From positions 1,860,001 through 1,924,000 of the forward strand of contig JAMXDE010000004.1 of assembly GCA_026770025.1 (NCBI GenBank): DNA of 64,000 nt, given 5' to 3'. The notes beneath the pieces are model-generated. The model worked only from the letters and a program-made list of their open reading frames with translations, was not told the origin of the DNA and made no database searches. Position numbers and translations under genes: made by a program. Positions 16,159 through 55,197 of this stretch are shown here, one piece after another (within the stretch, counting starts at the first letter, position 1; the number at the start of each line of letters is the position of its first letter). The DNA is from Craspedostauros australis. Lineage: Eukaryota; Bacillariophyta; Bacillariophyceae; Mastogloiales; Achnanthaceae.

Positions 16159-16317
16159 TTTAAGAGCCCCTCGAGTGAGTCGACCAACACTTTGAAATGG
16201 ACATTCTAACTTTTCATCTGCGATATCCAAACCAAGCACATATTCGTAATACCTATAGTCTCTTTATACATAATTAACCGTTACATTTTTTGTTAGATCC
16301 TTATTTTAAGTTTTATG
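16159..16317 (+). repeat. Left terminal inverted repeat of the 6-kb transposon
   Basis: It pairs in inverted orientation with 22044-22206. Shared landmarks include GAGCCCCTCGAGTGAG at the tip, CCAAACCAAGCACATATT in the middle and TTTTAAGTTTTA at the inner end. Confidence 0.85.
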
Positions 16318-16662
16318 GAGTGATCTATGTGTGCATTGCAGTCGCGTTGATCCAACAGCACAAAACCCGTTGTTGTTGGCAGAAGGTTCTATCATGTTCT
16401 CATGTATTTATCGTGAGGTGATCAGTCACGGACTTGCTTCCGAAGGTGTCAGTCGTTTGGTACGCGTTAATTACACGTTAGCATGTGGCACCTGATTCCA
16501 CATTCTGCTCGTCACAAAGCACATGACACAAAACACATCACACAAAACACATCATCGCCATCATTTCGCAAATTTGTGCCATGCTTCGGCTCCATTCACA
16601 ACTTGCCTCGCCAATGCCCTGCACACTCGCCCTTTCGCTCCATGCTAGTTCTCCTCCTCCTG

Positions 16663-16708
<46 letters not shown>
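16663..16708. repeat. (GTA)n microsatellite
   Basis: About 15 GTA units continue into four GTT units. They lie inside the transposon, ~125 bp upstream of the chosen transposase start, and create a spurious poly-Val reading frame. Confidence 0.95.
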
Positions 16709-16709
<1 letters not shown>

Positions 16710-16833
16710 TGTTGTTGTTGTCAACGAATGGTCGACCATTCATCGTTTGCTCTCCTTCCTCACTTCATCTCAACCTGTGCTGTTCATCACATCCAACCAG
16801 CTAACAACCATACTCAACACCAACAACTACATC

Positions 16834-19800
16834 ATGCCTATCTCGACCCCTACCAAGGCCCTCTCCAAGGATGCTAACCCCTCTGCCCGTAAGAAACCGC
16901 GTTCTGCTCGCCTTGCATCTGCTCCTCCTGCCGACTCCAAGGGAAACTTGCTCCCTACCGCGGAGCAACTGTTGCCTGACAAGCCATTCGCTGCGTTGAG
17001 GAAGCCAACCACCATCACGCGAGTGATCGATGTGAAGCCGATGCTCGCAGCGGATGGCAGCCTCGTCCCGAACGGTACGCATGCGCACGCTCGCGTGCTG
17101 CATGTGTTCGTTCACATCCTCGATGACAACGGAGGCGTCTTCGACGACTCCAACGTCAACGTGCGATCCGAGGGACGAGGTGTCGGCGATGGAACAGTGG
17201 TGAGCGTTGTCGTGAACGCGCCACCCCTGCCTGCTGCAGCTGATGTTGCTCCGCCTGTCGAGCCTACCCCGCCAGCGAGGCTTCCCCGGCGCTGCAATAC
17301 TGTTGTTGCTGGGGGCTACGCAGATGCCTCTGGCGACAGCGACAGCACCTACGACGACAACGGCAAGGAGGTACGGGCGCGTGCCAGCAGGAACAGGAGA
17401 GGAGGTCAGTTCGGGTACAATCTGGAAGAGGCGGGAAACTGGAGGCGCGATGCCATCGTTCGTGCGATGGCAGCTCTTGGATCTAACCTAGATCCAAAAC
17501 TGTTGCAGCTGATGCCGAAAAAAAGGGTTCGTCCTCACAGGCAGCCACGATCGGACCATCTGGAGCTCTGTGAAACAGATGTGGAATGTTGTCTCATCCG
17601 CGCTTTGGACAGTGCTGCTGCCAGAAGAGGACGTGCCAACTCGTCAGATGGAACAGGTGGTTGCATTCGTGCGCGGCAACGTGGATCTTCCGCCAATCAT
17701 GTTGGCGCCCAATCTGTACACCCTGGGCTTGCTCGGAGAAACTCCATCATCCCGCGCGGTGAGAGCTGCTTTGGCCATGTCTGCGCCACATGCACTGTGT
17801 ACTTCCATCCTCGAAAAGCGCGCGCAAGAACTGTCCGACGAACAGAAGACTCGTATGCTTCCCAAACGCGACATCATCACACATAGCCAGGTATGCACCT
17901 TGCGTCGCTACTACGACATGTTGAGCCATGGCGAAACCATCTCACCGCCAGTTCTTCAGTATCGCGTGCGTGCTTGCGACCTGTCTGGCGTGGTGTCCTT
18001 CCTCATGACAACAACAACATACAAGGCAGGGTTAAGTCACAAGGTACAGTATGGTGGAATTGAATTTGAGAATGTCCCGGTGTTCGATCGTGGCAGCACC
18101 ACCATCCAAGAATTATTCGACATGTACTCTTCCACTACCAATACTCCGGTTGGGATGCCTGCTTTCACCACCATGACCCACCTCCTCACACGCAAAAGCA
18201 AGATCAAGACAGGCCTCTCTTCCTTCGAAAGCTACTTCTGGATGGCAACGGGGAAACTCAAACAGGCAATTTCGCGCCTAGTAGACCTACTGAAGGCTAA
18301 GTATGGAGCAGATGGGGAGGAGCAAAATGATGCCGCTGTGGATGCCAATGACGAGTATCAGCACCAGAACAATGAGCCTGATGATGTCATCACACAGCAT
18401 GTGCGCACAGCCGATTCTCTCTTGCATGCACTCGAACTGCTTGTTGTGTTCCTCAAATGGGAGTTCACCGCCTCTCACATGCAGCTTCAGTGTGACGATC
18501 CAATGCACTCGGCCACGTTCGCTCTCACCACCAAAAAGGAGAAGAAGAAGGCATCAACCACATCGACCAATCAACGCAAAGCACGAACCAACAAACACAA
18601 GCGCAAGAAGAACACCGCTGTCACAAATGACACTTCTCCCACCACTGCAAGCGAACAACCACGTAAAGTATGCAACCGTTGTGGAGCAGCAATGCGATTT
18701 GTGAATGATCGTTTTGTTCCTTTTGTCAAAATGCTTAAGGACAACGAACTCGCAGAACACAATGACGAATTGCAATCAATGCTTGCAGCGGCCCCGGGAT
18801 TCGCCAACGAAATTGTTAACTACATGGCTCACAAAGTGCGTGCCAAAGTGCAATTCGGACAAATCGCCTTTTATCAATCCCAGCTCAATGAAAAGCCTGA
18901 AAGAGCCTATGTGGTACTCGACCATAAGCAAAAAATTCTACCGACAGGCCAAGGCGAAGCCCAACAAGAATATTGGGGGAAGAAGGGGATGTCACTGCTT
19001 GGGGCAATGGTCATCACGTGTCGCAACGACATTTTTACTTATCGGTTCATCGACATTGTGGTCGAGGGAAGACCGACGCAAGACACACTTCAAGTTGGTG
19101 GACTGCTGGAGATCGTGCAAAAAAAGGTCAAAGACATTCACCCATCCGTGACTGAAATCATCCTACAGAGCGATAACGCGTGTTGCTTTGCCAGTCACGA
19201 GCACATCGCGCTCATCACATCCAAACTCAACAAGAACCTTGTGACACGAAACGCCGCCAAAATCATCGCCTGGATCTACACGGAGGCCCAAACTGGTAAG
19301 AGCATGCTGGACACCCACTTCGCGTACATCACCCGTGTACTGCGAAAATACGTGCAAAGTGGCAAGGACATCAAGACCCCTTTCCAAGTCTTCCTCGCGC
19401 TCCAAGCCGGTAACATCGCAGGTACGACAACGGTACTTGTCAACGCGGCGCTCCTGGCAGGCAACATCACCACGCTGCCTGGTGCACCAAAACGACGATT
19501 CCGCGCAAGTGGGCAACAGGTACGTATGACTCACGAGGTGAAGTACGACGATGACCAGGCGCGGTTGGTGGCTGCATCTGGAATCACGGAAGATGTTGTG
19601 GTGAAGAGCACCGAATGGGGAGGGTGGATCATCAACGAGTTGGGTGTCATCGCGGACAAAACATTCACGTCCGACAAGCTGCCGATCACGTCCGAATCAT
19701 TCAGGAAGACGGACAAGACGCGAAAACTCGGGCGCACAGCGGCAGAGAGCAAGGGGCTTGCGTTCGGCAAGGCCATCGCAGACGGACAACAACATCTACC

Positions 19801-20350
19801 ATCCGATCACACCACAGCGCTACAAGACCAGACCGCAGAAACCGAACACCCACCACTCGCAGTACAAGGCTGGGCCAGCAAAACAGCACGGACCAATGCC
19901 AAACTACCGGACTACATTGCGGACAAATTGAAGGGCATCTGTGAAGTGTCCGCGAAGGACCCGAAAAACAGACCGTCCGAACACGAAGCACACGAGCAAT
20001 TGATGGACAGTGAAAAAGCCAAAACTGACTGGTACGTACAACTGCACGCTAACCCGATGCGTGTGAAAGCTTCACTGTCAGCAGCGTACAACGCCAAACA
20101 ACGCAAGGACAAGAAGCAAGCTGCTCTCAAGGCGGAAACCAACACCAACACCAACCCAACAAGCACAGCAACAGCATCTGTAATTGTGGCAACCTCCAAT
20201 GCACCAGCTGCAACAGAGGAGGAACGAATTGAAGAGGAGTTGCAGAAAGAGGAAGAGGAATTGGACCATCAGATGTGGTGTGATGCTCACACCATGAAGG
20301 CGAACACAGAAAGTGAGGCTGTGTTGGATGATGAGACGGAAATTTTGTGA
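16834..20350 (+). CDS. DDE/D transposase-like protein, read in two frames
   Basis: The first part reads from ATG 16834 (MPISTPTKALSK) in one frame to about 17520. The second part reads in the next frame to the TGA at 20348-20350. The switch coincides with a run of seven A at 17518-17524; with six A the two parts would be continuous, ~1,170 residues. So there is either a one-base error or insertion, or +1 slippage. The second part has a Lys-rich linker, a CNRCG zinc-ribbon-like motif, then an RNase-H-like core: VVLDHKQK (Asp 1), KKGMSLLGAMV, ILQSDNACCF (Asp 2) and WIYTEAQTGKSMLDTHF (Glu/Asp 3). I recall this core from uncharacterised animal and protist transposase-like proteins, but cannot name the superfamily; it does not look like piggyBac, hAT or Tc1/mariner. 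The C-terminus is acidic and coiled-coil-like. Position inside TIRs supports a transposase role. Confidence 0.65.
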
Positions 20351-20366
20351 TGGCTGTGCGTCACCG

Positions 20367-21874
20367 CGATAACACTAGTTGTGGAGTTTTGTGGGGGCAG
20401 ACCATGCTACTAAAACGAGTCTAGAGGCCATCCAAAAAGCACATCCAATATCTGCTTGTCATGCTATATCTCAACAACACATTGTCTACAATTAAATCTA
20501 AACAGTGCATTCATACACCTGACTAGTGTTTATACAGAATATCGAAGTTAAATTGACAAAGAAATTATTTTTAGTGTCATGTTGGTCCATCACACAGTTG
20601 TGTGGTGGATTCACAAAATTCTCGACCAAGCAATGTTGCCCTCCAATCAGCACCCATGATCATCATCATCATCCTGGTATTTTGATAAACTGCGCACCAC
20701 AATCGCTCTGTATACCCCCCATCTACCCACTCCATGAAGGATACAACGTTTTGGCCACATTGCATGCCCCAAAGTGTCCATACACTGAAAAAGAGTGATT
20801 CCAAAAAACGATTTTCAAGCCGGATGCGGTATGGATACGGATCCATACCTCATGCACATGACCCTTTCAGCCCCTCCACGTGCCCCTCGTGCATTCCCAC
20901 ACTCCCTGGTGACATGATGATGCATCCAGAGGGGGATGGGCATCGATGGTCTTGATGGTACACCTCCATTTGGTGATGCCATCTCTTTTCGTGGCACCCC
21001 ACCAAAACATGACCTGTCTGTACTCATTCGAGGCCACAGCCTCTTCCAGACAATATCTGCGGCGCGAACTTCGCGACGTGCATCTTCCGTTGGTGCCGCA
21101 CGCATCTTGCATGGGCGACTTGGCGATTGGGTGGCTTGATGATGCTGCCTGTCACAGCCAAAGCCACACCATGGGAACCCCCGCGATACACCGCCAAAAC
21201 TCTTGCCCTCCACTGTTTCCTCTGCGCGGACACCTTCTCGGTCGTCCCCGAACCTCAAACTTCGTGTGAATCTTGGTCTTGGCCTCCTGGAGCCATCCTG
21301 CCCATCCATAGGCGTTGGGGTGGGCTGTGGATGGAGTACACCGGCCATATGCAACGAGGCAATCTGGCGCGAAATTGTGACGTTTGATCTGGGGCCTGCG
21401 ACGGCCCCAAATCAAGCGCTCTCGCGGCCCCCTCTCGTCCACCCACCAACGGCTGCATCGCGGTGACGGCGATGTGCTTGGATTTGTCATTGGACCGCTG
21501 GTTGGTGCGGCGCAGTGATTGCCGTTGGACAGCCATTGTGGCGTTTTTTGGTGTTCCGCCATTGTCATGTTGTTGTTTTTTGGAGTCTGGCACTCTCAAC
21601 CAGTCGGACATACTGGGGGATAAGGTAATTGCAAACACCTAACCAAAATGCACGAAAGAAGCATGACACAAAACACTTCCGGAGTACCAATGCAACTCGA
21701 CCATTCCGTCACGACGAAACGTCGCTGATGCTGCTTCACATCGTGCTGTGATTGGTGGCTCATGACGCAGCAGCCAGTCTAGTGACGTAGATGACGGATC
21801 AGACAGGCACAGGGTAGAATGGATCCAAACGCGCACTCGCCGCTTCTCCCAAAACTCTACAACTAGCGCTATCG
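20367..21874 (-). mobile_element. Nested small TIR element, copy A (unassigned, degraded coding)
   Basis: The ends are inverted repeats of about 30 bp: CGATAACACTAGTTGTGG from 20367, and its near-complement ending CTACAACTAGCGCTATCG at 21874. No clear target-site duplication was found. The minus strand carries ORF pieces (21152-21568, 20815-21354, 20577-20846) whose protein sequence resembles plus-strand frames of copy B at 41.3-43.2 kb: HTKFEVRGRPRRCP with SGGQEF, VWKRL-x-P-x-M, and SFMEW-x-DGGY. The coding part is frameshifted here. The element sits 17 bp past the stop of the larger transposon's gene, so it inserted after that transposon. Confidence 0.65.
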
Positions 21875-22043
21875 TGGACGGGGTGTTGGATGGTCTGATC
21901 GGAACACCTCAAAAAGAGACTAAACAATTCAAAATGGGAACAACGTCGCTGAAACGAAGAACAGCAAAGGGTTAAATTGGATCGATGTAGTCGTAGGCGA
22001 AAGGCTGAAACCCGAGAGAGATCGAAAATTGCTCATATCCATC

Positions 22044-22206
22044 GGTCCGTAAAACTTAAAATAGGATCTAACTCAAAAATGTAATGGTTAATTATTTGTA
22101 TTAGACCTACAGGGATTACGAATATGTGCTTGGTTTGGACAACGGAGACAAAAATCCAAGAGGTCTATTTCAAAGTGTTGGTCGACTCACTCGAGGGGCT
22201 CTTAAA
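22044..22206 (-). repeat. Right terminal inverted repeat of the 6-kb transposon
   Basis: This is the inverted partner of 16159-16317. It ends CTCGAGGGGCTCTTAAA, with TTAA at 22202-22205. Confidence 0.85.
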
Positions 22207-30263: not shown

Positions 30264-32009
30264 ATGTCAAGAGTGACTGAGAAAGACCTTGCGGATGCGG
30301 CCGAACAGGGAGACATGGAAACCGTCAAGTTGTGGAAACAGCAAAACCCGAGCAACTCCAAGGATCCATCCAAGGTCCCAAACGGGGACAAGCTGCTGCA
30401 CACCGCACGCAAGCACGGCCACGTCAACTTTGCGAAGTACATGATTGGATCATGCGGAGCGAATCCCAGCGCCCCCATCGATGGCCGGTACACCCGCACT
30501 GCGATGTTTGCTGCATGCGATCATCCAACTCCCACAATCTTGGAGTATTTGATCACATCAGGAAGAGTTGATTCCAGCCGTCAGGATGGCAACGGAAGAA
30601 CAGTGCTGCACCATGCAAGCCAAAAAGGATTTGTCGATGTTGTGAAGCAGTTGCTGTCATTGAGAGAAATGGACGTCAATCGTCAAGACGACCGTGGGAG
30701 AACGGCGTTCCACCTTGCCTGCGAAGAGGGACATTTCGAGATTGTGAAGTGTCTCGTGGCTTCAGGAAGAGCAGACCTCGACCTTCGAGATCGCGATTAC
30801 ACGACAGGGTTTTGGCGCACTGTCGAGAAGGGGCACCTGAACATTGCGAAGTTCTTGATCAAGTCAGTTGCAGCAGAACCCACACCTAACCTGAAAAGAA
30901 GCAAGCACGCACTTAACTCAGCATGCGAACAGGGATGGTTCGACACTGTCAAAGAGTTCATAGAGGCATCCGAGCTGAATTCGGAGTTCCAAGAGATTGT
31001 TGGGATGAATGCATTTCTGGGTGCATGGGAGCGGGGCCAAAGGGATATTACGGAGTACCTGATGAATTCGGGCGCAGTTGATGTGAACAGCAAGGGTGAC
31101 TATGGTCGGTCTCTTCTCCACATCGCATGCCGCGACAATGACGTACGTCTGGTGACGTACTTGGTGGAGTCACACAGTGCGGACGTTAGCATTGAGGACG
31201 AGTGGGGCAGCCTTCCATTCCACTATGCATGCCGAAGCAGATCCAAGGATGTCAGGGAGTACTTCATGGAGTCACACAATGTCGACATCAACGTTCAAAA
31301 CAAGAATGGCGACACTGCACTCCATCAAGCGTTCAAAGACCCTGATGGTGTCTCTTCTGGGTTGGCGAAGTACTTGATCGAATCATGTGAGATAGATCTC
31401 ACCATCGAGAACAATGATGGCAAGACAGCGTTTGAGAGTATGGATCATGAACCAGAGACAGATGGCTGGAAGTTAAGGGATGCGATGTACTGGGGCGAAG
31501 AATACCTGGACTTTGCTCGCATGTTCCACAATGAATTGATACGAAAGATTGAACAGGAACGGGAGAGGAAATCCAACCACCCATCACAAAACAACATGTC
31601 GGGCCCGGAGCCTGGTCGCGATCAGCATGGGCCTCATGCTCTTCGCGAACAGGCGGTGTCCGATCTCACCTTCTTGGCTGGATCCGGTGAAGTCCAAGAA
31701 GCAATCAAAGCAAAGAGCACAATCCTTCTATTGGCTCAACCATCCATCAAAGCAATCATCGACTCCGGTAGCGTCCATACTCGTACAAGTCCAGAAGACG
31801 GCACCCAACACACAACCATCAACCTTTCTCAACATCACCCGAAGCACGTCCGTGGAGTTCTTCAATGCATCTGTTTTGGTGACATGTCATTCATCAAGGC
31901 TGGCGAGATGGCCAATGAGAGCGATCTCCAAGGCTTGCTGTTGGCGGCAAAGCAGTTTGGATGCTCAGAGCTGAAGGTAGCCATCGAAGAAGAACTAGCG
32001 GAGAAGTGA
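30264..32009 (+). CDS. Ankyrin-repeat protein with C-terminal BTB/POZ-like domain (copy 1)
   Basis: This is a 581-residue intronless frame. Residues ~8-400 hold about ten ankyrin units, clearest at GRTVLHHASQKGFVDVVKQLL, GRTAFHLACEEGHFEIVKCLV and GRSLLHIACRDNDVRLVTYLV. A charged linker (~425-460) follows. The C-terminal ~110 residues (KAKSTILLLAQPSIKAII, VRGVLQCICFGDM, LQGLLLAAKQFGCSELKVAIEEEL) read like a BTB/POZ fold with its typical AA-x-x-F/Y-x-x-x-x-LK end. Proteins of this kind often act as scaffolds or as Cullin-3 substrate adaptors; which applies here is unknown. No membrane segment. The ATG follows a CAT-repeat leader. It lies upstream of the cyclase/PDE gene in both duplicated units, so a functional link is possible but unproven. 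Confidence 0.8.
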   Translation: MSRVTEKDLADAAEQGDMETVKLWKQQNPSNSKDPSKVPNGDKLLHTARKHGHVNFAKYMIGSCGANPSAPIDGRYTRTAMFAACDHPTPTILEYLITSGRVDSSRQDGNGRTVLHHASQKGFVDVVKQLLSLREMDVNRQDDRGRTAFHLACEEGHFEIVKCLVASGRADLDLRDRDYTTGFWRTVEKGHLNIAKFLIKSVAAEPTPNLKRSKHALNSACEQGWFDTVKEFIEASELNSEFQEIVGMNAFLGAWERGQRDITEYLMNSGAVDVNSKGDYGRSLLHIACRDNDVRLVTYLVESHSADVSIEDEWGSLPFHYACRSRSKDVREYFMESHNVDINVQNKNGDTALHQAFKDPDGVSSGLAKYLIESCEIDLTIENNDGKTAFESMDHEPETDGWKLRDAMYWGEEYLDFARMFHNELIRKIEQERERKSNHPSQNNMSGPEPGRDQHGPHALREQAVSDLTFLAGSGEVQEAIKAKSTILLLAQPSIKAIIDSGSVHTRTSPEDGTQHTTINLSQHHPKHVRGVLQCICFGDMSFIKAGEMANESDLQGLLLAAKQFGCSELKVAIEEELAEK

Positions 32010-33582: not shown

Positions 33583-36500
33583 CCCTTCCTGTGTGCATTC
33601 GGTCATTCGAATGTTCTCGATGTGTCAAGGTACGACTTCTCATGTTCGCGTTGTAAGTCGGCCTTGATGTTCTTGGTGAATCCGTCGCTTGTGTTCTGCT
33701 CGGATTTGACGAAAATGATTTCGATGGTTTTGTTGATTACCATGTTCCTCACGTAGTGATGGCGCACGTCGATGTGCCGCGATCGTTGGGATGTTGATGG
33801 GTTCTTGGCGATGAAGATAGCTCCGATGTTGTCCACACGGACCTTGATCGGTGTCTTCACTGGGACGCCCACACTTTCGAGTAGCTGCATGACGAAGAAG
33901 ATTTCCTTTGCCGCTTCGGAAAGGGCAATGTATTCTACTTCGGATGAGCTGAGTGTGACGGCCTTCTGTGCTTTGGATCGCCAAAGGATTGGTACCTTGC
34001 ACAGGTATAGGATGAACCCTCCTATGCTGATTCTTGTGTTCTTGTCTCCTGCATATTCGCTATCGCAGAAGAGTTCCATGTCCCAGCCGTCATCGTCTGG
34101 ACGCGCTGGATGGATCTTCAATCCATAGTCCTTTGTATCAATCACATACTTGATGATCCGATATATCTCCTTCATTGTGGCCTTGGTGGGCCCGATCAAT
34201 ACCTTGGAGAGTTCCCTCACAGGGTTCGCGATATCTGGTCGCGAGTGCTTGATGAGGAAGAGTAGCATACCGACGCCTCGGCGGTATTCGGCATGTTCTT
34301 CCGGTCCGACCTTCTGCAGTCCGTTGTCTTCGGATGGTTGTACGATGATTTGGCCCGGGGTTCCCAGTGTCCCATAGCGTTGCATCTTCTCAACCTTGGT
34401 TCCGAACTCTTCGATGAGGTGTCGGATGAGATGTGGTTGACACAATGTCGCTCTAGTCTTGTCATGGTTCAGTTCGATGTTGCAGCTGAGGTAGTCTCCG
34501 AGTCCGCGCTTGATTGTCACCTTGAACTTGCTGCCTTGGATATCCTTCAGGAATGTCTCCAGTGCCTTGGAGTCTCCGCAACAGAAGCAATCGTCCACGT
34601 AGATGGCCACGATCATGCTTCCTTCGTTCGTCTTCCTGTAGAACAGGCACGGGTCTGCTGCGCTCTGTTCGAAATTGATATTCTTGAGGGTTGATACCAT
34701 CATCTTGAACCATTGCCTGGCGCTCTGCACAAGTCCGTAGATTGGCTTGTGTAGGGTCAGGGCTTCGTCTGGTTGATGATCCATCCTGTTGGGACAGTTC
34801 ATGTAGATCTCCTCGTCGAGGTCTCCATGTAGGAATGCCGTTACAACATCGACGAGTGCGCAGTCCATCTTCTTGATCAGCATGATCACCATCATGACCC
34901 GATAGGTCACGTCATGGATGACGGGTGAGTAATGCTCTTGGAAGTCTACTCCTGCGACTTGTGAATAGCCACATGCAACGAGCCGTGCTCGATGTGTGCC
35001 GTCACGTTTCAGCTTGAAGACCCATTTGCATTTGCAGCATCTGCGGCCGCGTGGGATGGTGTTTCGTTTGATCTTGCTGTACACCTTGCGTGTATCCATG
35101 GAGTCGAACTCCTTCTTGATGGCTGCTCGATATCCCTTTCGATGGATGGGATCTGGGTGATTGAAGGCTCCGTCGAACGTTGTAGGTTCGATGTGCTTCT
35201 CTGGCTCCTTGTTCTCGTCCTGCATCAATAATCCGAGATCGATCGCTGATGTCTCGGTAATGATTGCGTTCATTCCATATACTCCTGTTGTACTATGGTG
35301 GGTGATCTCGATTTCTCCTTCATCCATGATTTCTTCATCATCTGTAGTTTCGTTGTTGGAATCATCGATCATCTCGTCGCTGAGTTCGTCACTCGCCTCG
35401 GCGGATGATGGATCGCTCTCATAGCCTTCTTCCTTTCGACCTTGTTCGTTGAAGTCTGCGAGCTCACGCAGAGCTCTGGGAATACTCTTCCCTGCAGTTG
35501 ACTTGGGATTAGCTTCTCCCTTCCTGCCTCGTGCTTCGTGACGTCGGATCCTCTCCTTTCTAGCTATGTCACGCTTGCTTGGTTTGCTCGGTGGAAGTTT
35601 GGATGGTGTGTCATGTGTAGACCTTGCTGGTGTATTCGGAGGGGTGACACCTGTCTCATCATCGGCTTCGTCGCCGGAGGGTAGGATTTCGTCATCCTCA
35701 TGATTGGATTCGCTCCGATCTTCCTCGTCATTCTGGATTAGTTGAGTCACTACTCCGTCGTCCTCATTATCCTCATCATCGCTGTCTGATAGGATGCAGT
35801 ACCTGTTGCTGTCAGCGAAAGATACTCTCTTCGCTTCCGATGTTTGACGCGTTGCCGTCCTTGGCGTTGCTCCCTTCCGTCCGATGGTTGTGAAGCCGTC
35901 TGCGTCCGTTGTTCCTGTTTCGTTGGATATGTTTGGTGCTGGTGCCCAGCCACGGAACTGTCCGTATGATTGGTTGAGCCACTTGATGTCCCGTGAACAG
36001 ATGAGTGACTTGGTCGATGGTCTGTACATGTTGTAGACCCCTGATGCATGTTGGTGTGCATATCCGATGAACACCATCTCTTCTCCTCTATTCTTGAGTT
36101 TGGCGGTGATCCCGCCGTAGGTAGTCTTCACAACACCCACCTCTCCGAAAGTGCGGAGTGCATCCGCGTGTGGTGGATCGTTGCCGAAGAATTGTCGATG
36201 TGGTGACTCCTTTTGATTCTTCGCTATGGTGATGTTTGCGATGGCGGTGGCAGTGCTAGCAGCTGCTGCCCATAGGCCATGCCTATACTCTTCGTCGAGC
36301 TGTGCTCCGTTGAGCATGGAGCGGATCTTGGTGTAGAGGTACGCGAACTTGCGTTCCACTCTGCCGTTCTGTTGCGGCGTGTTCGATGCCGTGAATTCGA
36401 ATTTCACGTTGAGTCCTGCATCGATGAGAATATCCTGCGTGGATTTGTTCTCTCCGCTGTTGTCACCTCGGAAGATGATCTGTTGGTCACCAGTCTGTGA

Positions 36501-39500
36501 CTTGATCGTTTGGATGAATCGTTTGATGTACCCTGGTTGATCACTTTTGTTCTTGAGAAAGAAACTCCAGCAGGGATCCATGCAGTTGTCCACGATCAGG
36601 GTCCAGTAGCGTTTATCTCCGAAGCTTATGTGTTTAGTGTAACTAATGTCAATGAAGAGCCATTCGCCGCGGCGAGTTGCTCTCGGAATGGTTGCCTTCG
36701 GAATGTTCTTCACTCTTGCGTTCGCGACCGCGCAGTCGCGACATACCGGCATCTCGCCGATAATCTTCCATCCATACTGAGCGGCCGTCCGCTTCATGGC
36801 TTCGAGTGGCGCGTGGCCGAGCATTCGATGCAAGTTCACCGCGCTGATCTCCTTGGATGGGTTCTTGATGATGGCTGTGCAAGCCTTGTCGTCGTTCGTT
36901 GGCATGATGGGATGCATCTGCACTCCCGTGATGAATCCGTTGGCTGTGGGGAAGACTCGGTCGAATACGATCTTTGTTCCGGATCCGTTGATGATGTCCA
37001 TCAGAATGCCGTTGCTACCAAGCTGGTAACCGTTGTACAGAGCCTTGTTCGTGAAGAAAAGGTTCACCGCCATTTTCGGTGTGTACTTCACGTCATCGAG
37101 CCGGATGATGTGGCCAGTGTTGTCTCGTTGCTTGACCTTCAAGCGAATGGATCCCATTTTGGGAGAGTCCAGCTTCATGCTATCTCCCACTTGGACGAAT
37201 GACTTGATGTGTCGCACGTTGAAGAGAGCGGCGTCTGAATTGACGATGTGACACGAAGCTCCACTGTCGGCGAGCCAGGTGTCCTTGTTGACCTTGTCCT
37301 TGTGCTTGGTGCTCAGCTTGTGGAGCTGCTCCACAGCTGCTGCAGCTGTATCGGTCATGAAGTTGTCTTCGTCTTCTTCGTCGACGTGGACTCCATATTC
37401 GTTCCATGGATTCTCGTGATGTTCGTCGTCGGTCTCATCGGATAGCTGCGCGTAGTCCGATGGAGTCGTGTTGCTTCAGTGTGATCCTGTGACTGGATCG
37501 TATGGGTGGACGCGTGATCGCTCTCGCAAGAGTACACGCATACATCCTCCAAGGATGTAGTGCAGATCCGTTTCTGGGATCGTCTCTGTGTTGTTCGCTT
37601 CCAGTATGCGGTTAATGATGATCGCATTGGCAAGGATCTCTTCGATTGATTCGAAGTGCTCGGATAGGATGGATCCCATCATGTTCACCCATATCGGTCT
37701 GAGCACTCCTCGTGCGGTTCCTGAGAACAGTCGCATCCCCGCTTCCATTACGGCGTCAAAGATGAGCTGCTTTTGGATTATCAATGCTGTTGCTGTTGCA
37801 TTTGGGATGGTGCTGTGACGGAGGAGGTAGTCGACGCTGTTGGGATCCTCAATAGGTGGGAAGTCGATGTTCCCTGGGTAGACGACACGCTCGTTTGGGT
37901 TGAAGCTGTCGTCCGGATGATCTTCGGTTTCGTCGCTGTCATCTTCGTCGAAGATGCCCGATCTGTTGTTCCCCGCTGCTGGAGGAGGCGGCGCTGCGCC
38001 GCGGTTTGCCTCGTCGTCTTCATCTATGCCGTCCTCGTCGGCGTCGTCGTCGTCATCGCTCATGGCCTCTTCGATGTCGCTATCGTTGGCCTCGTTGTCC
38101 ATCTCAGCTTCGTCGCCGTATGAACCGATCAGGTCGTTTGCGTTGAAGCAGCATTCGTAGCTCACTTCGCGTCTTGGATCCACCTCGTGGATGATTGGCT
38201 CCTCGCTGAGCCGCTCCGGGATGATCTCATCATCCTGCACTTCGTCGTCATTCCCGACGTATTCGAAGTTATCGAAGAAGGAGTCTTCAATGTAGTCGTC
38301 GGACACCAACATGCAGAGCGGCATGCCCTTTGCCGAGAGTACCATCTCGTGCCCGCTCTTGTCGTGTCCTTCCGTTGCTGTGTTGACCTGTTCGTTGGCC
38401 TTCTTGTTCTCGTTGAACTTCTTCTTTCGGCGCTCCGCCTCGCGGTGTCCGAAGATGCCACAGTAGTTGCACTTCCCGTTGAAGCCGCTTCCTTTGTTGC
38501 GGTTGTTGTTGCGCTTTCCGTTCATCTTGTTGTTGTTGTTGTTTTTCTTGTTGTTCGATTTCTTGCGTTCTGGGCAATCGGCGGATCTGTGACCATACAC
38601 ACCACAGTTGTGGCAGGTCCCCTTGAAGTTACCGGTGCTCGCGAAGCCGGTGTCGTTGTTCTTCGTGTTACTGTCTTGGAAGTCGTCGATGTACGCCTTG
38701 CCTCCTTGATGAGTGGCGTATGCTGTTCGGAGTACTCCTCTGATCGCATTGATGGTGACGAGTTCCGGATTAAACGTGAGTTGATGTTGGAAGTTCACGA
38801 TGTGGGTTCTGTATTCCACGCTCACCGTGCTGAGGATCTGCATGATCATCTCTTCGTCTGTGATCGTGTACTTGACATCGTGGAGACGCGATCGTAGACC
38901 CTCGAGTCACGTGATGTAGATGTCGGGGTCTGAGTCTTTCTTCATCTTTTCGTTGTTGAACTGACGCTTGAGTTTGATCTTCGTTGCTGCGTCGGATGAA
39001 CGGAACTTCTCCGCGAGAACGTTCCACGCTGCGTGTGGATCTCCTTCGGGGTAGTCATCGGAGACGCATTGGTTGATGTACTGGATGGCTTGCTTGCCTT
39101 TTCCCTTCTCTGCGTCCATCATGAGGATCAGATCACTGAAGCAGTCGCATCCCAGCTCGTAGATCTCCTCCATCGCTTCCTTGGCTTCGTCGGTGGCTGC
39201 CGCGATCTCACTCACCGTTGGGATCTTGGTCTTTCCCAACATCACGTCTCTCGTCTTCTGTGCACGAGCGTATGCCTTTGCTTGGGACTCCCATGCGCTG
39301 TAGTCTTCCTGTTCACCGCTGAACATCGGCGCCTTGATACGTCGCTTGTTCATGTTGGCTGATGTCGCCATGTTGGTTCGTTGTTTCGTTGTTGGTGCGC
39401 TCGCGCCCTTGATTTCCGTCGGTTTCTGTGTTGCCGATTCTTCGATTTTCGCTTGTTGTTTCGAGAGGACTGATTTGCTCACAAATTCTCCTCCTGGTGG

Positions 39501-44121: not shown

Positions 44122-47100
44122 ATGGTCCAGCTTTCCGGAAATAATCCCAATGGAGTCCAAGCAGCATCGCACGCACCGCAGGAGTCAGCTGTTGCGTCAA
44201 CAGTCGATGAAGCCGCGTGCGGCAACTCGGGCCCCACGGAAACAACCCATTCCCCAGCCACATCGATCCAATCCTTCCATGGCCATACCTACAATAGTGC
44301 CGTACGGCTGCCAAACCCACACAACGATGATGAATCCGCGTCGTCTGTGATGGAAGGTGACGATGTCTCGGTACCGTCCAGCAGCATCGACAACAAGGCG
44401 CGTCCAATGAGCACCTCCAGACTCGCGGCGGAGGAGGAACGTCTCGTGACGTGCTCCAAGATGCTGCTGGTGATGGTCCTGCTGCTCACCATGGCTACAT
44501 TCGCAACCGTCACATACGTCTTCACATCACAGCAACAGGAAGATGATCTTGTCACCAGAGTACGTGCTTTTTGTTGGAGCGTATGGAAGATTGTATGCGT
44601 GAAACTATCGCGTCCGGCTTTACGGAATGCCGGTCCCACATTGACACAGAAGCACGAGTTCGGTTCTGGAGTGGTTGATCTGCAATTGCCCACATGAGAT
44701 TCCACCAAGAGGAGGCAATGCATGTGGCCTGGCTTTCCACCATGGTGGCGATCATCATCGTTGGCATCTCATCTCTAACCATCCTTCCCGATCTCATCCT
44801 TCCTCTTCCCACGTGCTCTGCCGTACATACCATACGGCTCCACCTACGCCCATGCGGCGGTTCCATTCTCCCCTTGTTTGTGCACCAACTTGAACTCTGC
44901 TACGTACGCCAAACCAAACTGCAACTACAAATGTAAACGCCGATGCAACATGTCTCTCTAGTTCACCGACTTTGCAAATCAAATCATCACCGTGTACGAA
45001 TTGAATGGGGAACACATCGTGGGTACTTTGGAGGAATTCAGTACATCGCTCACCGCACATGCCATCCAAACGAATTCGACCTGGCCGTTGGTCACTGTCC
45101 CTCTGTTTGAGGCATTGGCGGAGCGTGCCATCCAAGCGACGGGGTCCCGATCGATAGGCGTCGCCCCGCTCGTCCCGGAAGCCCAGCAGGGCGAGTGGCT
45201 GGGGTACGTCATGCAGCAGAATGAAGTTTGGAGAGCAGAAAGTTACAAGCACATGGGGCTTCCCTTCATACCTAGCACGTCAGCTGGTGGTCCACCACCT
45301 GGTGTCGGAGGAATAGATGCAGGCGCAGGGCCACCTCCGGGTGTCGGAGGAACGAATACAGGTGCAGGGCCGCCGCCTGGCGTTGCGCAGGGAAGCGGCC
45401 CACCGTCATTTGTCACTGGAGAGAATACCAGCGAAGTCTCCACCACGAGCACCACCAATGGACCACCAGCATTCGTCAACAATGGGAGCAACAGCAGCGA
45501 CGCTGGTGGCAGCACTGGCGGTCCTCCCGACGGGGTGCGGGGAGGTGGGGATGATGGCACGGCTCCTCCCATATTTCCCTTCATCTGGACAAACTTCACT
45601 CCTCCTCGTCCCGTCGAGGGTGTCACTGGAGCATCATCGCCGATATCCAAAGGCAAGTTCGCACCCTTCTGGCAAGTTGCGCCCATCGTAGGGAACGACA
45701 TCATCGTGAACTACGATACGTTCACGCTGCCGGGCATACCTGAGAACTTTGATAGCATCGTCCGAAGTGGACGTCCAGTGTTGTCCGAGATCCTGCAATT
45801 GCCGAGAGGTGGAACCTTCTTTCCGCCGGAAAGCTACCTCCTCAGCCCAGTCTTCGCCACTCTGCGGAAGGACCTCGACTATCCTGCCAGCACAGAAGCG
45901 ACGACGACCTTCAGCAGCCTCAACAACCGCAACCGGGTCCAGAAGCCCAGCGCAGAGAACAGAACCATCGTCGCGACGGTCATTTCTTTGTTGCCGTGGC
46001 ACAACTACTTCGTGAACCTCCTGCCGGAGGACATCGACCCGATTTACATTGTTATTCGCAGCAACTGCGGGGTCGAGTACACGTTCCTCATCACGGGTCC
46101 CGATGTGTCCTACCTGGGCAACGGCGACTTCCATGACACCGAATGGGATGCGTACGAGGTTAAGACCACCTTCTCCCCATTCGAAGGAAGCGACTGCAAG
46201 AACTCTCTCTACATGTACCCAACCTCGGAGTTCCATAGCACATATATCACCGACAAGCCCATCATCTACACTGTCGGTGTGATCATAGGCCTCTCCATCA
46301 CGGCGCTTGTCTTCGTCATCTACGACTGCACCGTGGAACGCCGGCAGGACAAGGTCATGACGACAGCCACGAGATCCACCGCCATCGTCAGCTCGCTGTT
46401 CCCCCAGAACGTGCAGGACCGGCTGATGGAAGAGGCTGCAGCACGAGAAGTGGAGGAGCAGAAGCAAGCGAATCTGAACCGAGCCAAGAACCCTGTCACC
46501 GAGCTGCTTGGAAGGTACGACAAGAACAAGGACGCGTTCCGCATGGCGAATCGGACATCGGATTCTGCGGCATCTTGCGGTCCCGTCACAGTCATGAAAT
46601 CGCAGCACTCGTTGGGACCCTTTTCTCCAAGCAGCGGGCACAACGGCGACGGCCATCAAACCAACTTTGTTGGGGCGAGCCCTCAGCGCAGCGCAGGAAT
46701 GGGATTGGACGGCGGATACAGCCATCACAGCCACTCTGTGACGGAGGCATCGATGAGTCGGAAGCTGTCCATGGCGTCTATTATCCCAGCCTCATCGATG
46801 CACCAGAACAGCAAACCAATTGCGGATCTGTTCCTGAACGCCTCGGTCTTGTTTGCGGACATCGTTGGCTTCACTGCTTGGTCATCCGTGCGAGAACCGA
46901 CGCAGGTGTTCATTCTGTTGGAGGGCATTTACAACGCCTTCGATAAGCTGGCAAGGAAGCGTGGCGTCTTCAAGGTGGAGGTGAGTACGGTTACATATGA
47001 TATGATACTAAACTGGTATTCCATCACGCGACGATGGATGGGCAGTGTGCAAATGCTGATTGCTATGCCCACTGATCACCCAGAAACCTTGCTCATTCTC

Positions 47101-49813
47101 CCACTCATCACAAACTGTTTTCAATTCCACGTTCCCGCCACTCGTAAATGCCTACTGCTGCTGCCTCACTCACTCACTCACTCTTTATCACACGTACGAG
47201 TAGACCATCGGTGACTGCTATGTAGCCGCAACTGGCCTTCCCGAACAGCAGGAGCACCATGCTCTCATCATGGCCAAGTTCGCACGCGATTGCTTGGCGA
47301 AGATGTCCAGCGTCCTCAGGCGCCTTGAGGTGTCGCTCGGTCCTGACACAGTCGAGCTGGGCATGCGCGTTGGCATCAACTCTGGCCCAGTCACTGCGGG
47401 CGTCCTGCGTGGAGAGAAGTCCAGATTCCAGCTCTTCGGTGACACAGTCAACACGGCGGCGCGGATGGAGTCCACCGGCAAGAAGCACAAGATTCACCTC
47501 TCCGCGTCCGCCGCAACCAGCATTACCGCATCCATGGAGGCATCCGAGAAAACTCAGAACATATGGATTATGCCACGCAACGAGCCAATCGATGTCAAGG
47601 GCAAGGGGCAGATGGAGACGTTCTGGTTGGCGTACGGGTCACTGAGCACGGGGTCTGCGACGTCCAGCACTGTTGGAGGCACACCGCAAATCCAAAAACG
47701 AAAGTTCCCTCAACGCCGCCTCAGCGGATTGGGAGGTGTATCGGAACATGAGCCGCTGACGCAGCCAATAGATGATGGCAGTGCGCCAGCTCCACTTCAA
47801 CAGAAAACACTTTCGATGAAACCAAGCTCCTCCAACGGAAGCCTCAGCAGCTTCGGTGACAGCGTCGACGCAGTCTCAACAACTCGCTCGTCGTACGGCT
47901 CACAAGCGAATCGAAGCACGAGTACGGATGACGACGATGACAGCAGCAGCGAGTCTGCAGAGATGCCCGAGTTTCTTCGGGAGAGTGTCATCGACAGACG
48001 AGAACGCTTGATCGATTGGAACGTCGACGTGCTGCGTGAGTTGCTCCAGAAGATCGTGGCCATGCGACGTGGCCATTCCAACAATAGCACCACGTCGCTG
48101 CAAGCCACAGTCCAGCAGCAGGCAGAGCTTCGGGACCTGGAGAAGGAACATCACGATTCCATCAAGTACAGCATCCTCGACGAGGTTCAGGAGATTATCG
48201 AACTCCCCAACAAGCCAGCGAAGTACGGCACCGACCCACAGTCCGTCCACCTGGATGATGCCGTCGTGGCGGAGCTGCGAGACTTCGTGTCGAGGATCTG
48301 CTACATGTACCGCGACAATAGCTTCCATTGCTTTGAGCATGCCAGGTGAGTATTGGCATCATGCTATACTATGTATGGTCGTTTTTGCGTTATTGTCTTG
48401 TTCAGGTCTTGGAGATGGCAACGGCACAGATGGCGGCAGTGATGACTGTTCAATCTTGTCACAACTCCACTCATACCCGTACATCTCACCCTTGTCATGC
48501 CTGCTTGATCGACGAATCGTTTTGTGCAACGTTGCCCTATTCTACTCTACTCTGTCTGGAATGCTCCAATCGTTCCACCATGCACTGTATGAACATCCGC
48601 ACACCTCAGCCATGTGACGCAATCTGTGATCAAGTTGATTCACAGAGTCGTCACGCCGGACTCCATTGATTACAAGAAGATGGCATACACGAAGACCGCT
48701 ACGAAGACGCTGCACCAGTACACGTACGGTATCACATCCGATCCATTGACGCAGTTCTCCGTTGCCCTCTCGGCATTGATCCATGACGTGGATCATCCTG
48801 GCGTCCCCAACGCACAGCTGTGCAAGGAACGCGATCCCGATGCCGTGCGCTACAAGTTCCAGAGCGTCGCCGAGCAGAACTCGATCGACCTTGGCTGGGA
48901 CTTGCTGATGGCGCCTCAGTACGAGGCCCTGCGTGCTTGCATCTACAGTAATTGCGAAGAATTCAACCGCTTCCGCCAGCTGATCGTCAACACCGTCATG
49001 GCCACGGACATCGTGGACAAGGAGCTCGGCTTGCTCCGTAAGAAGCGCTGGGAGACGGCCTTCGCCAATGTTCAACCCAAGCACCCTGGTTCGGCACCGG
49101 CAACGCCCGTCCCGCCCAAGAAGAAGATCTTGAAGAAGCACAGCAAGCAATTCAAAACGCCATCTCCGGTCAAGCCCGGCGGCGTGAGATCGTCGGTGAC
49201 AAGCATCGACTTTTCCGGCAAAATGACCGAGACCATCTTGCAGAAGGTGCCGCATCTGGATCTGCGAAGCCCAATCAAACACAACACCATCAACGTCCAT
49301 GGCAACGGCAACGGCAACGGCAACAGCGCTAACCCCAATAAGGCCGACAACAACAAAGACAACCTCCTGCTATCACCCATCACCATCCCGAAGTCCATGT
49401 CCTCACTGAATCCATCCAACCACACCAACGTCTCCGAAACGACGCGCAACGACATGAACCGCAAGGCCACCGTCGTGATCGAGCATCTGATCCAAGCCTC
49501 CGACGTGTCGCATACGATGCAGCATTGGCACGTGTACTTGAAATGGAACGAGCGTTTCTTCGAGGAATGCGCCATGGCGTACAAGGAAGGCCGCGCAGGA
49601 CGCGATCCCGCCAAGAATTGGTACGCGGGCGAGCTTGGATTCTTCGATCATTACATCATCCCGCTGGCCAAGAAGCTGAAGGATTGCGGCGTGTTTGGCG
49701 TGGCGTCGGACGAGTACCTGAACTACGCGACGGCGAATCGCAAGGAGTGGGAAGCGAAAGGCCAGACGATTGTGGAAGAGTACGTCAGGAGGTTTCAGCA
49801 GAAGAATGGATGA
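44122..49813 (+). CDS. Receptor-type nucleotidyl cyclase fused to class I cyclic-nucleotide phosphodiesterase (copy 1)
   Basis: The gene has four exons (44122-44559, 44962-46980, 47204-48345, 48610-49813) joined by GT-AG introns, predicting 1,600 residues. There is a cytosolic N-terminus with DDVSVPS, TM1 at ~114-134, an extracellular region containing a Pro/Gly-rich repeat (~254-296), and TM2 near 580-602. The class III cyclase domain (~769-965) has both metal Asp sites (FADIVGFT, TIGDCY), the Asn/Arg pair in DTVNTAARMES, a guanylyl-type Glu in FKVE, and Gln (47429-47431) where guanylyl cyclases have Cys. The PDE domain (~1140-1590) has FHCFEHASHVTQ (assembled across intron 3), HDVDHPGVPN, MATD and QASD, split by a ~120-residue low-complexity insert (~1355-1475). 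The usual purine-selecting Gln is Glu (GELGFFD, 49631-49633). It should both make and hydrolyse cGMP and/or cAMP at the membrane. ATG 44122 is chosen because it aligns with copy 2. Confidence 0.88.
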
Positions 49814-53430: not shown

Positions 53431-55197
53431 ATGTCAAGAGTGACTGAGAAAGACCTTGCGGGTGCGGCCGAACAGGGAGACATGGAAACCGTCAAGTTGT
53501 GGAAAGAGCAAAACCCGAGCAACTCCAAGGATTCATCCAAGATTCCAAACGGGGACAAGCTGCTGTACACCGCATGCAAGCACGGCCATCTCGACTTTGC
53601 GAAGTACATGATTGGATCATGCGGAGCGAATCCCAGCGCCCCCATCGATGGCCGGTACACCTGCACTGCAGTCTTTGCTGCCTGCGATCATCCAACTCCC
53701 ACAATCTTGGAGTATTTGATCACATCAGGAAGAGTTGATGTCAGGCGTGAGGATGGCAATAGAAGAACAGTGCTGCACCATGCAAGCCAAAAAGGATTTG
53801 TCGATGTCGTGAAGCAGTTGCTGTCATTGAGAGAAATGGACGTCAATCGTCAAGACGACTGTGGGAGAACGGCGTTCCACCTTGCCTGCGAAGAGGGACA
53901 TTTCGAGATTGTGAAGTGTCTCGTGGCTTCAGGAAGAGCAGACCTCGACCTTCGGGATCGCGATTACACGACAGGGTTTTGGCGCACTGTCAAGAAGGGG
54001 CACCTGAACATTGCGAAGTTCTTGATCAAGTCAGTTGCAGCAGAAGCCATACCTAACTTGAAAAGAAGCAAGCACGCACTTAACTCAGCATGTGGACAGG
54101 GATGGTTCGACACTGTCAAAGAGTTCATAGAGGCATCCGAGCTGAATTCGGAGTTCCAAGAGATTGTTGGGATGAATGCATTTCTGGGTGCATGGAAGCG
54201 GGGCCAAAGGGATATTACGGAGTACCTGATGAATTCGGGTGCAGTTGATGTGAACACCAAGGGTGACTATGGTCGGTCTCTTCTCCACATCGCATGCCGC
54301 GACAATGACGTACGTCTGGTGACGTACTTGGTGGAGTCACACAGTGCGGACGTTAGCATTGAGGACGAGTGGGGCAGCCTTCCATTCCACTATGCATGCC
54401 GAAGCAGATCCAAGGATGTCAGGGAGTACTTCATGGAGTCACACAATGTCGACATCAACGTTCAAAACAAGAATGGCGACACTGCACTCCATCAAGCGTT
54501 CAAATGCCCTGATGGTGTCTCTGCTGGGTTGGTGAAGTACTTGATCGAATCATGTGAGATGGATCTCACCATCGAGAACAATGATGGCAAGACAGCGTTT
54601 GAGTGTATGAATCATGAACCAGAGTTAGATTGCTGGAAGTTTAGGGATGTGATGTACTGGGGCGAAGAATACCTGGACTTTGCTCGCATGTTCCACAATG
54701 AATTGATACGAAAGATTGAACAGGAACGGGAGAGGCAGGAGCAGACTGCAATCCAGGAATCCAACCACCCATCACAAAACAACATGTCGGGCCCGGAGCC
54801 TGCTGGCGATCAGCATGGGCCTCGTGCTCTTCGCGAACAGGCGGTGTCCGATCTCACCTTCTTAGCTGGATCCGGTGACGCCCAAGAAGCAATCAAAGCA
54901 AAGAGCACCATCCTTATTCTGGCTCAACCATCCATCGAAGCAATCATCGACTCCGGTAGCGTCCATACTCGTACAAGTCCAGAAGACGGCACCCAACACA
55001 CAACCATCAACCTTCCTCAACATTACCCGAAGCACGTCCGCGGAGTCCTTCAATGCATCTGTTTTGGTGACATGTCATTCATCAAGGCTGGCGAGATGGC
55101 CAATGAGAGCGATCTCCAAGGTTTGTTGTTGGTGGCAAAGCAGTTTGGATGCTCAGAGCTGAAGGTAGCCATCGAAGAAGAACTAGCGGAGAAGTGA
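53431..55197 (+). CDS. Ankyrin-repeat protein with C-terminal BTB/POZ-like domain (copy 2)
   Basis: This 588-residue intronless frame is ~94% identical to the 30264-32009 protein, with the same ankyrin array and BTB/POZ-like end. Differences include a seven-residue gain in the charged linker (RQEQTAIQ region after REMFHNELIRKIEQERE-like helix), DSSKIPNGDKLLYTACKHGHLDF for DPSKVPNGDKLLHTARKHGHVNF, and VRREDGN for SSRQDGN. The frame is intact, so both copies may be functional. The leader CAT repeat before the ATG is conserved, but the upstream TATA-like site of unit 1 is not. Role as adaptor or scaffold is inferred from the domain pair only. Confidence 0.8.
   Translation: MSRVTEKDLAGAAEQGDMETVKLWKEQNPSNSKDSSKIPNGDKLLYTACKHGHLDFAKYMIGSCGANPSAPIDGRYTCTAVFAACDHPTPTILEYLITSGRVDVRREDGNRRTVLHHASQKGFVDVVKQLLSLREMDVNRQDDCGRTAFHLACEEGHFEIVKCLVASGRADLDLRDRDYTTGFWRTVKKGHLNIAKFLIKSVAAEAIPNLKRSKHALNSACGQGWFDTVKEFIEASELNSEFQEIVGMNAFLGAWKRGQRDITEYLMNSGAVDVNTKGDYGRSLLHIACRDNDVRLVTYLVESHSADVSIEDEWGSLPFHYACRSRSKDVREYFMESHNVDINVQNKNGDTALHQAFKCPDGVSAGLVKYLIESCEMDLTIENNDGKTAFECMNHEPELDCWKFRDVMYWGEEYLDFARMFHNELIRKIEQERERQEQTAIQESNHPSQNNMSGPEPAGDQHGPRALREQAVSDLTFLAGSGDAQEAIKAKSTILILAQPSIEAIIDSGSVHTRTSPEDGTQHTTINLPQHYPKHVRGVLQCICFGDMSFIKAGEMANESDLQGLLLVAKQFGCSELKVAIEEELAEK

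What the first reader, a model, noticed from the sequence alone, without database searches (positions are those of the whole stretch)
16159..22206. Apparently undescribed TIR DNA transposon with ~160-bp ends and TTAA flanks
Inverted ends at 16159-16317 and 22044-22206 bracket a large DDE/D transposase-like gene whose core (VLDHKQK, QSDNACCF, TEAQTGKSMLD) does not match the TTAA-targeting piggyBac family as I know it. Long TIRs, TTAA junctions and this transposase together could define a distinct group.
Basis: partly seen in the sequence, partly recalled or inferred. Interest (0 to 1): 0.75.

Follow-up and report, generated by a model that had tools for sequence, protein, structure and literature searches.

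The report
Very young diatom DNA transposon family
This is a jumping gene of the DNA-transposon kind in what looks like a diatom genome, present in well over a hundred copies that insert at four-base sites centred on TA; it is not piggyBac, and its exact superfamily could not be settled here.

Summary
The element is real: 6,038 bp, window 16164-22201, inverted ends of about 155 bp, one large gene. But "TTAA" is only this copy's target. I examined 27 copies and located both ends in 26; all 26 have a 4-bp target duplication N-T-A-N (10 different sequences, TTAA in 2 of 26). One copy lies in a tandem array whose neighbouring unit shows the joined, uninterrupted site with a single ATAG. The genome holds at least 138 copies of the transposase core, 89-100% identical; 102 of 138 lie in an open frame of 1150 codons or more. 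Two sisters on other contigs differ from the window copy by one substitution each plus two small indels, so movement was very recent. The window gene is frameshifted by one extra base in an A-run. No member matches a transposase family in Pfam. piggyBac fails on target and domain; standard Kolobok fails on TTAA specificity and on its C/DxxH signature. The published Sola description (4-bp duplication, DDD transposase, TIRs of 11-1124 bp) fits, but homology to Sola could not be tested. Most likely a new member of a known kind.

The parts
16160..16163 (.). left target-site duplication, TTAA (an instance of N-T-A-N)
16164..16317 (+). left terminal inverted repeat, begins GAGCCCCTCGAGTGAGTCGACC; its outer 35 bp are identical to the right end
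16834..17524 (+). 5' part of the transposase gene (frame 1), from the ATG shared by 10 of 10 aligned intact copies to the end of the A-run with the extra base
   Evidence: that this ATG is the start is inferred
17525..20350 (+). 3' part of the transposase gene (frame 2), with the putative catalytic region and the stop codon
18911..19312 (+). putative DDD/E core, from VVLDHK through QSDNACCF to TEAQTGKSMLD; these three motifs are invariant in the 11 aligned members
   Evidence: the catalytic residues are inferred
20351..22047 (.). stretch between gene and right end; no frame is shared by the 25 copies compared, so probably non-coding, yet its length is nearly constant
22048..22201 (-). right terminal inverted repeat
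22202..22205 (.). right target-site duplication, TTAA

Best explanation
A recently mobile family of autonomous DNA transposons of about 6.0 kb in a probable diatom. Intact copies encode one protein of about 1,170 aa (1,156-1,182 aa from the shared start in 10 copies) whose central region carries three invariant acidic motifs of the kind seen in DDD/E transposases. The protein probably binds the ends (GAGCC, five variable bases, AGTGAGTCGACC), releases the element and joins it to a target cut with a 4-base stagger centred on TA; gap repair then gives the N-T-A-N duplication. Shown: boundaries, 4-bp duplications, one empty-site equivalent, copy number, purifying selection, very recent movement. 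Inferred: the catalytic residues, an RNase H-like fold, binding of the ends, cut-and-paste rather than copy-out. It works like a Sola-type transposon; membership in Sola is not tested.
For: TIRs; 4-bp N-T-A-N duplications in 26 of 26 resolved copies, 19 of 26 non-palindromic, so a true direct repeat; a 71-bp uninterrupted site with one ATAG in a neighbouring tandem unit of L012; at least 138 core copies at 89-100% identity, 102 of 138 in a frame of 1150 codons or more; ratio of mean dN to mean dS 0.26 from the shared start and 0.19 in the core over 45 pairs of 10 intact genes; two sisters at other loci with other duplications (ATAA, ATAC) and one substitution each; in 52 ends, 10 of the 12 positions 11-22 are invariant; three motifs invariant in 11 aligned members.
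Against: No transposase family matches and no solved structure is related by sequence (one hit, E = 1), so 'transposase' rests on location, conservation and motifs. E941 is as invariant as D950, so the third catalytic residue is open. The structure prediction had no alignment and failed (mean pLDDT 39.2). No excision footprint was looked for, so cut-and-paste is not separated from copy-out. The 27 copies were chosen by me, mostly because both ends had been hit about 6 kb apart, so they are not a random sample of the 138 or more.
Confidence: 0.85

Rival explanations
1. It is a true member of the Sola superfamily (Sola1, 2 or 3, or a divergent branch) with a TA-centred 4-bp target. This is the more specific form of the best explanation.
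For: 4-bp duplications in 26 of 26; TIR of about 155 bp and length 5982-6145 bp lie in the published ranges; an invariant third D is present; Sola-1 and Sola-2 families are listed for the brown alga Ectocarpus (passages of PMC12477816).
Against: No Sola transposase sequence was available, the founding paper is not held, and I found no statement of subgroup target preferences in the listings and passages seen. Structural features alone do not define the superfamily.
Confidence: 0.5
2. It is a separate, unnamed superfamily or deep lineage of DDD/E transposons with N-T-A-N targets.
For: No transposase match in Pfam (11 members; best of the unrelated weak hits E 0.021), NCBIfam (window protein only) or PHROGs (two members, best E 0.084). 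No confirmed relative in viral contigs or prokaryote genomes (one search gave 3 pattern matches that I judge chance).
Against: These libraries may not model Sola and similar eukaryotic superfamilies, the collections hold few or no eukaryotes, and the scans rely on short exact motifs. No eukaryotic repeat library was available.
Confidence: 0.2
3. It is a Kolobok lineage with relaxed target choice.
For: 4-bp duplication; ends 5'-GA...TC-3', that is RR...YY, in 52 of 52 ends, as passages of PMC9587614 describe for Kolobok, which they also report from a diatom.
Against: TTAA in only 2 of 26; no C/DxxH from the second D to past the last acidic motif in L009; no THAP domain in the Pfam scans (that Kolobok proteins often carry THAP is recalled).
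Confidence: 0.08
4. It is a divergent piggyBac element.
For: The window copy and one other of 26 are flanked by TTAA.
Against: Other targets in 24 of 26. DDE_Tnp_1_7 is absent in 11 of 11 members, while the same profile has 160 matches in this genome and none of those listed lies on the window element (some matches were not listed).
Confidence: 0.02

Closest known systems
Sola superfamily (Sola1-3)
   Same: 4-bp target duplication, TIR and element length within published ranges, DDD-type motif possible (passage of PMC10741241)
   Different: Transposase homology untested; target is TA-centred with free outer bases, and I saw no subgroup target preference in print to compare with
Kolobok
   Same: 4-bp duplication, RR...YY termini
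   Different: Not TTAA-specific; C/DxxH signature not found in L009
piggyBac
   Same: 4-bp duplication, TTAA in 2 of 26 copies
   Different: Other targets in 24 of 26; no DDE_Tnp_1_7 domain
Tc1/mariner
   Same: TA at the centre of 26 of 26 targets
   Different: 4-bp, not 2-bp, duplication; no matching Pfam domain

Membership tests
Sola | 4-bp target-site duplication | tested here: met
   26 of 26 resolved copies; empty-site equivalent
Sola | most elements 2-9 kb, TIR 11-1124 bp | tested here: met
   5982-6145 bp in 26 copies; window TIR about 155 bp
Sola | DDD transposase | tested here: inconclusive
   D820, D904 and D950 (L009 numbering) invariant in the 11 aligned members, but so is E941; structure model unreliable
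Sola | transposase homologous to Sola1/2/3 transposases | not testable with these tools
   no Sola sequences or Repbase held; founding paper not held
Kolobok | TTAA-specific duplication | tested here: not met
   2 of 26 are TTAA
Kolobok | C/DxxH between second D and last acidic residue | tested here: not met
   none in that segment of L009; depends on the motif assignment
Kolobok | 5'-RR and YY-3' termini | tested here: met
   GA at 52 of 52 ends
piggyBac | TTAA-specific duplication | tested here: not met
   2 of 26
piggyBac | DDE_Tnp_1_7 catalytic domain | tested here: not met
   no hit in 11 of 11 members; the profile works elsewhere in this genome
Tc1/mariner | 2-bp TA duplication | tested here: not met
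   4-bp direct repeats in 26 of 26, 19 of 26 non-palindromic

The most novel reading that the evidence does not exclude
An unnamed superfamily of eukaryotic DDD/E transposons defined by a 4-bp N-T-A-N target, long ends beginning GAGCC...AGTGAGTCGACC and a single protein of about 1,170 aa, still moving in a living diatom.
Probability: 0.2. Interest if true: 0.55.

Novelty: new member of a known kind. Interest (0 to 1): 0.35.

Why it matters
A DNA transposon family with well over a hundred copies, most of the core copies found lying in long open frames and some nearly identical, is a candidate for a native, currently mobile element in a diatom, with a simple TA-centred target. That would be useful for studying how diatom genomes change, and possibly as a tool. 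It also corrects the reading of one junction as TTAA targeting.

Tried and rejected
Rejected: TTAA targeting and piggyBac; standard Kolobok; an accessory gene after the transposase: opposite-strand frames of 120-332 codons are open there, but several frames are open over the same stretch and none is shared by the 25 copies compared (L025 left out because its core motif is broken).

Led nowhere: viral contigs (2 pattern stretches, none confirmed; no match); prokaryote genomes (135 pattern stretches, none confirmed; 3 pattern matches, judged chance: best tblastn E 0.021 on three short loci, and that one, L035, lies in a frame that by recollection reads like an LD-carboxypeptidase); PDB sequences (one hit, E = 1); PHROGs; the rRNA search for host identity (machine errors). 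Nine paper searches showed no statement of an N-T-A-N duplication or of Sola subgroup targets in the listings; of nine papers (PMC5199201, PMC4455052, PMC9587614, PMC6875170, PMC12803021, PMC10741241, PMC12477816, PMC9033089, PMC10294476) I saw only passages, none whole. The structure model (mean pLDDT 39.2) was too poor to use and no fold search was run.

Full report
What is there. The window copy runs from 16164 to 22201 (6,038 bp). Its ends are inverted repeats (132 nt at 83% complementarity plus inner blocks); the outer 35 bp are identical. TTAA flanks both sides, at 16160-16163 and 22202-22205.

Host. The window is part of a 74.8-Mb genome in 90 contigs. The silicon-transporter family PF03842 has 88 matches there, and genes of the window carry guanylate cyclase, phosphodiesterase, ankyrin, AAA and Copia-type reverse transcriptase domains. 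I infer a diatom; the species is not known.

Copies and target. The two TIR searches each scored only 40 of about 350 candidates (41 and 40 matches), so counts are lower bounds. I examined 27 copies: the window, 20 stretches (19 chosen because both ends had been hit about 6 kb apart, and L028 by its left end) and 6 (chosen by their transposase). Both ends were located in 26; L028 was dropped because its right end was not in the place searched. All 26 have abutting 4-bp direct repeats with central TA: ATAT 5, ATAC 4, CTAT 4, ATAA 3, ATAG 3, TTAG 2, TTAA 2, TTAT 1, GTAG 1, CTAA 1. The script could return only equal 4-mers, but no copy except L028 was lost by that, and the junction sequences were printed without this condition. 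Nineteen of 26 duplications are not palindromes, so they are true 4-bp direct repeats and not part of the TIR. In the flanks of the same copies 4-mers agree at 19 of 3770 symmetric offsets. L012 sits in a tandem array; 71 bp of its joined flanks occur uninterrupted in a neighbouring unit, with a single ATAG. That is an empty-site equivalent, not a proven ancestral allele.

Age and activity. Sisters L009 (ATAA) and L010 (ATAC), on other contigs, differ from the window copy by one substitution each, a 21-bp or 3-bp length change in a GTA repeat, and one base in the A-run at 17518-17524. That base breaks the window gene; a sequencing error in the run cannot be excluded. The core search gave 138 matches at 89-100% identity (352 candidates, 138 scored). 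Of the 138, 102 lie in a frame of 1150 codons or more without a stop in the match, and 2 have a stop in it. For 10 intact genes (45 pairs) the ratio of mean dN to mean dS is 0.26 from the shared start and 0.19 in the core (0.33 in the N-terminal part): the protein is under selection.

The protein. Eleven sequences align; the window's is only its second frame. Ten intact copies share a start and are 1,156-1,182 aa from there. The motifs VVLDHK, QSDNACCF and TEAQTGKSMLD are invariant. I take D820, D904 and D950 (L009 numbering) as the likely triad; E941 is equally invariant. Pfam scans of 11 members gave only unrelated weak hits (best E 0.021); the window protein has none in NCBIfam; two members have only weak hits in PHROGs (best E 0.084). 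The piggyBac profile is a working positive control: 160 matches in this genome, best E 1.8e-42, and none of those listed lies on the window element. The structure attempt is uninformative.

Ends. In 52 ends of 26 copies, positions 1, 2, 4, 5, 11, 12 and 15-22 are invariant; position 3 differs in 3, position 13 in 6 and position 14 in 1 of 52; positions 6-10 vary, and the two ends of one copy may differ there. GAGCC, five variable bases, AGTGAGTCGACC is a plausible binding site, by inference.

Classification. Target and domain tests exclude piggyBac; the 4-bp repeat excludes the 2-bp TA duplication of Tc1/mariner; standard Kolobok fails TTAA specificity and, in L009, its C/DxxH signature (passages of PMC9587614; tests), though the RR...YY ends fit. 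Sola is described as DDD transposases with 4-bp duplications, mostly 2-9 kb, TIRs 11-1124 bp (passage of PMC10741241). The structural features fit; homology is not tested. So I say it works like Sola and do not file it as Sola.

Against my reading. Nothing but location, conservation and motifs shows that the protein is a transposase; cut-and-paste is assumed; the copies were not a random sample; and relatives outside this genome remain unknown because no eukaryotic collection was available.

Noticed in passing
G000, many contigs: Silicon transporter family PF03842 has 88 matches; by my count of the listing 32 of 88 cover at least 483 of 513 profile positions, 28 of these 32 without an in-frame stop. 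From memory, model diatoms have only a handful, so this looks like a large expansion.
   Followed up: no
G000: The piggyBac-type profile DDE_Tnp_1_7 has 160 matches (some of them pieces of one gene): a second abundant DNA transposon group in this genome.
   Followed up: no
alignment A1, columns 880-1050 against 425-800: Mean synonymous distance is 0.19 in the transposase core but 0.68 just upstream, which suggests exchange of the core between subfamilies (gene conversion), or constraint on its DNA.
   Followed up: partly
window 30264-32009 / 53431-55197 and 44992-49813 / 58486-63399: Two similar ankyrin-repeat genes and two similar sets of guanylate cyclase plus phosphodiesterase frames: apparent segmental duplication (domains checked on the first copies only).
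   Followed up: no
window 33603-38849, minus strand: Copia-type retrotransposon frames; the larger one carries an RVT_2 domain.
   Followed up: no
L011 and L012 (G000:C27:312035-324857): Two elements, 87% and 94% identical to the window copy, lie about 260 bp apart at a short tandem array.
   Followed up: partly
window 20351-22047 and the same part of other copies: From the stop codon to the element's end the length is 1847-1855 bp in 21 of 25 copies (1832 and 1834 in two, two have broken genes) although no frame is shared; reason unknown.
   Followed up: partly
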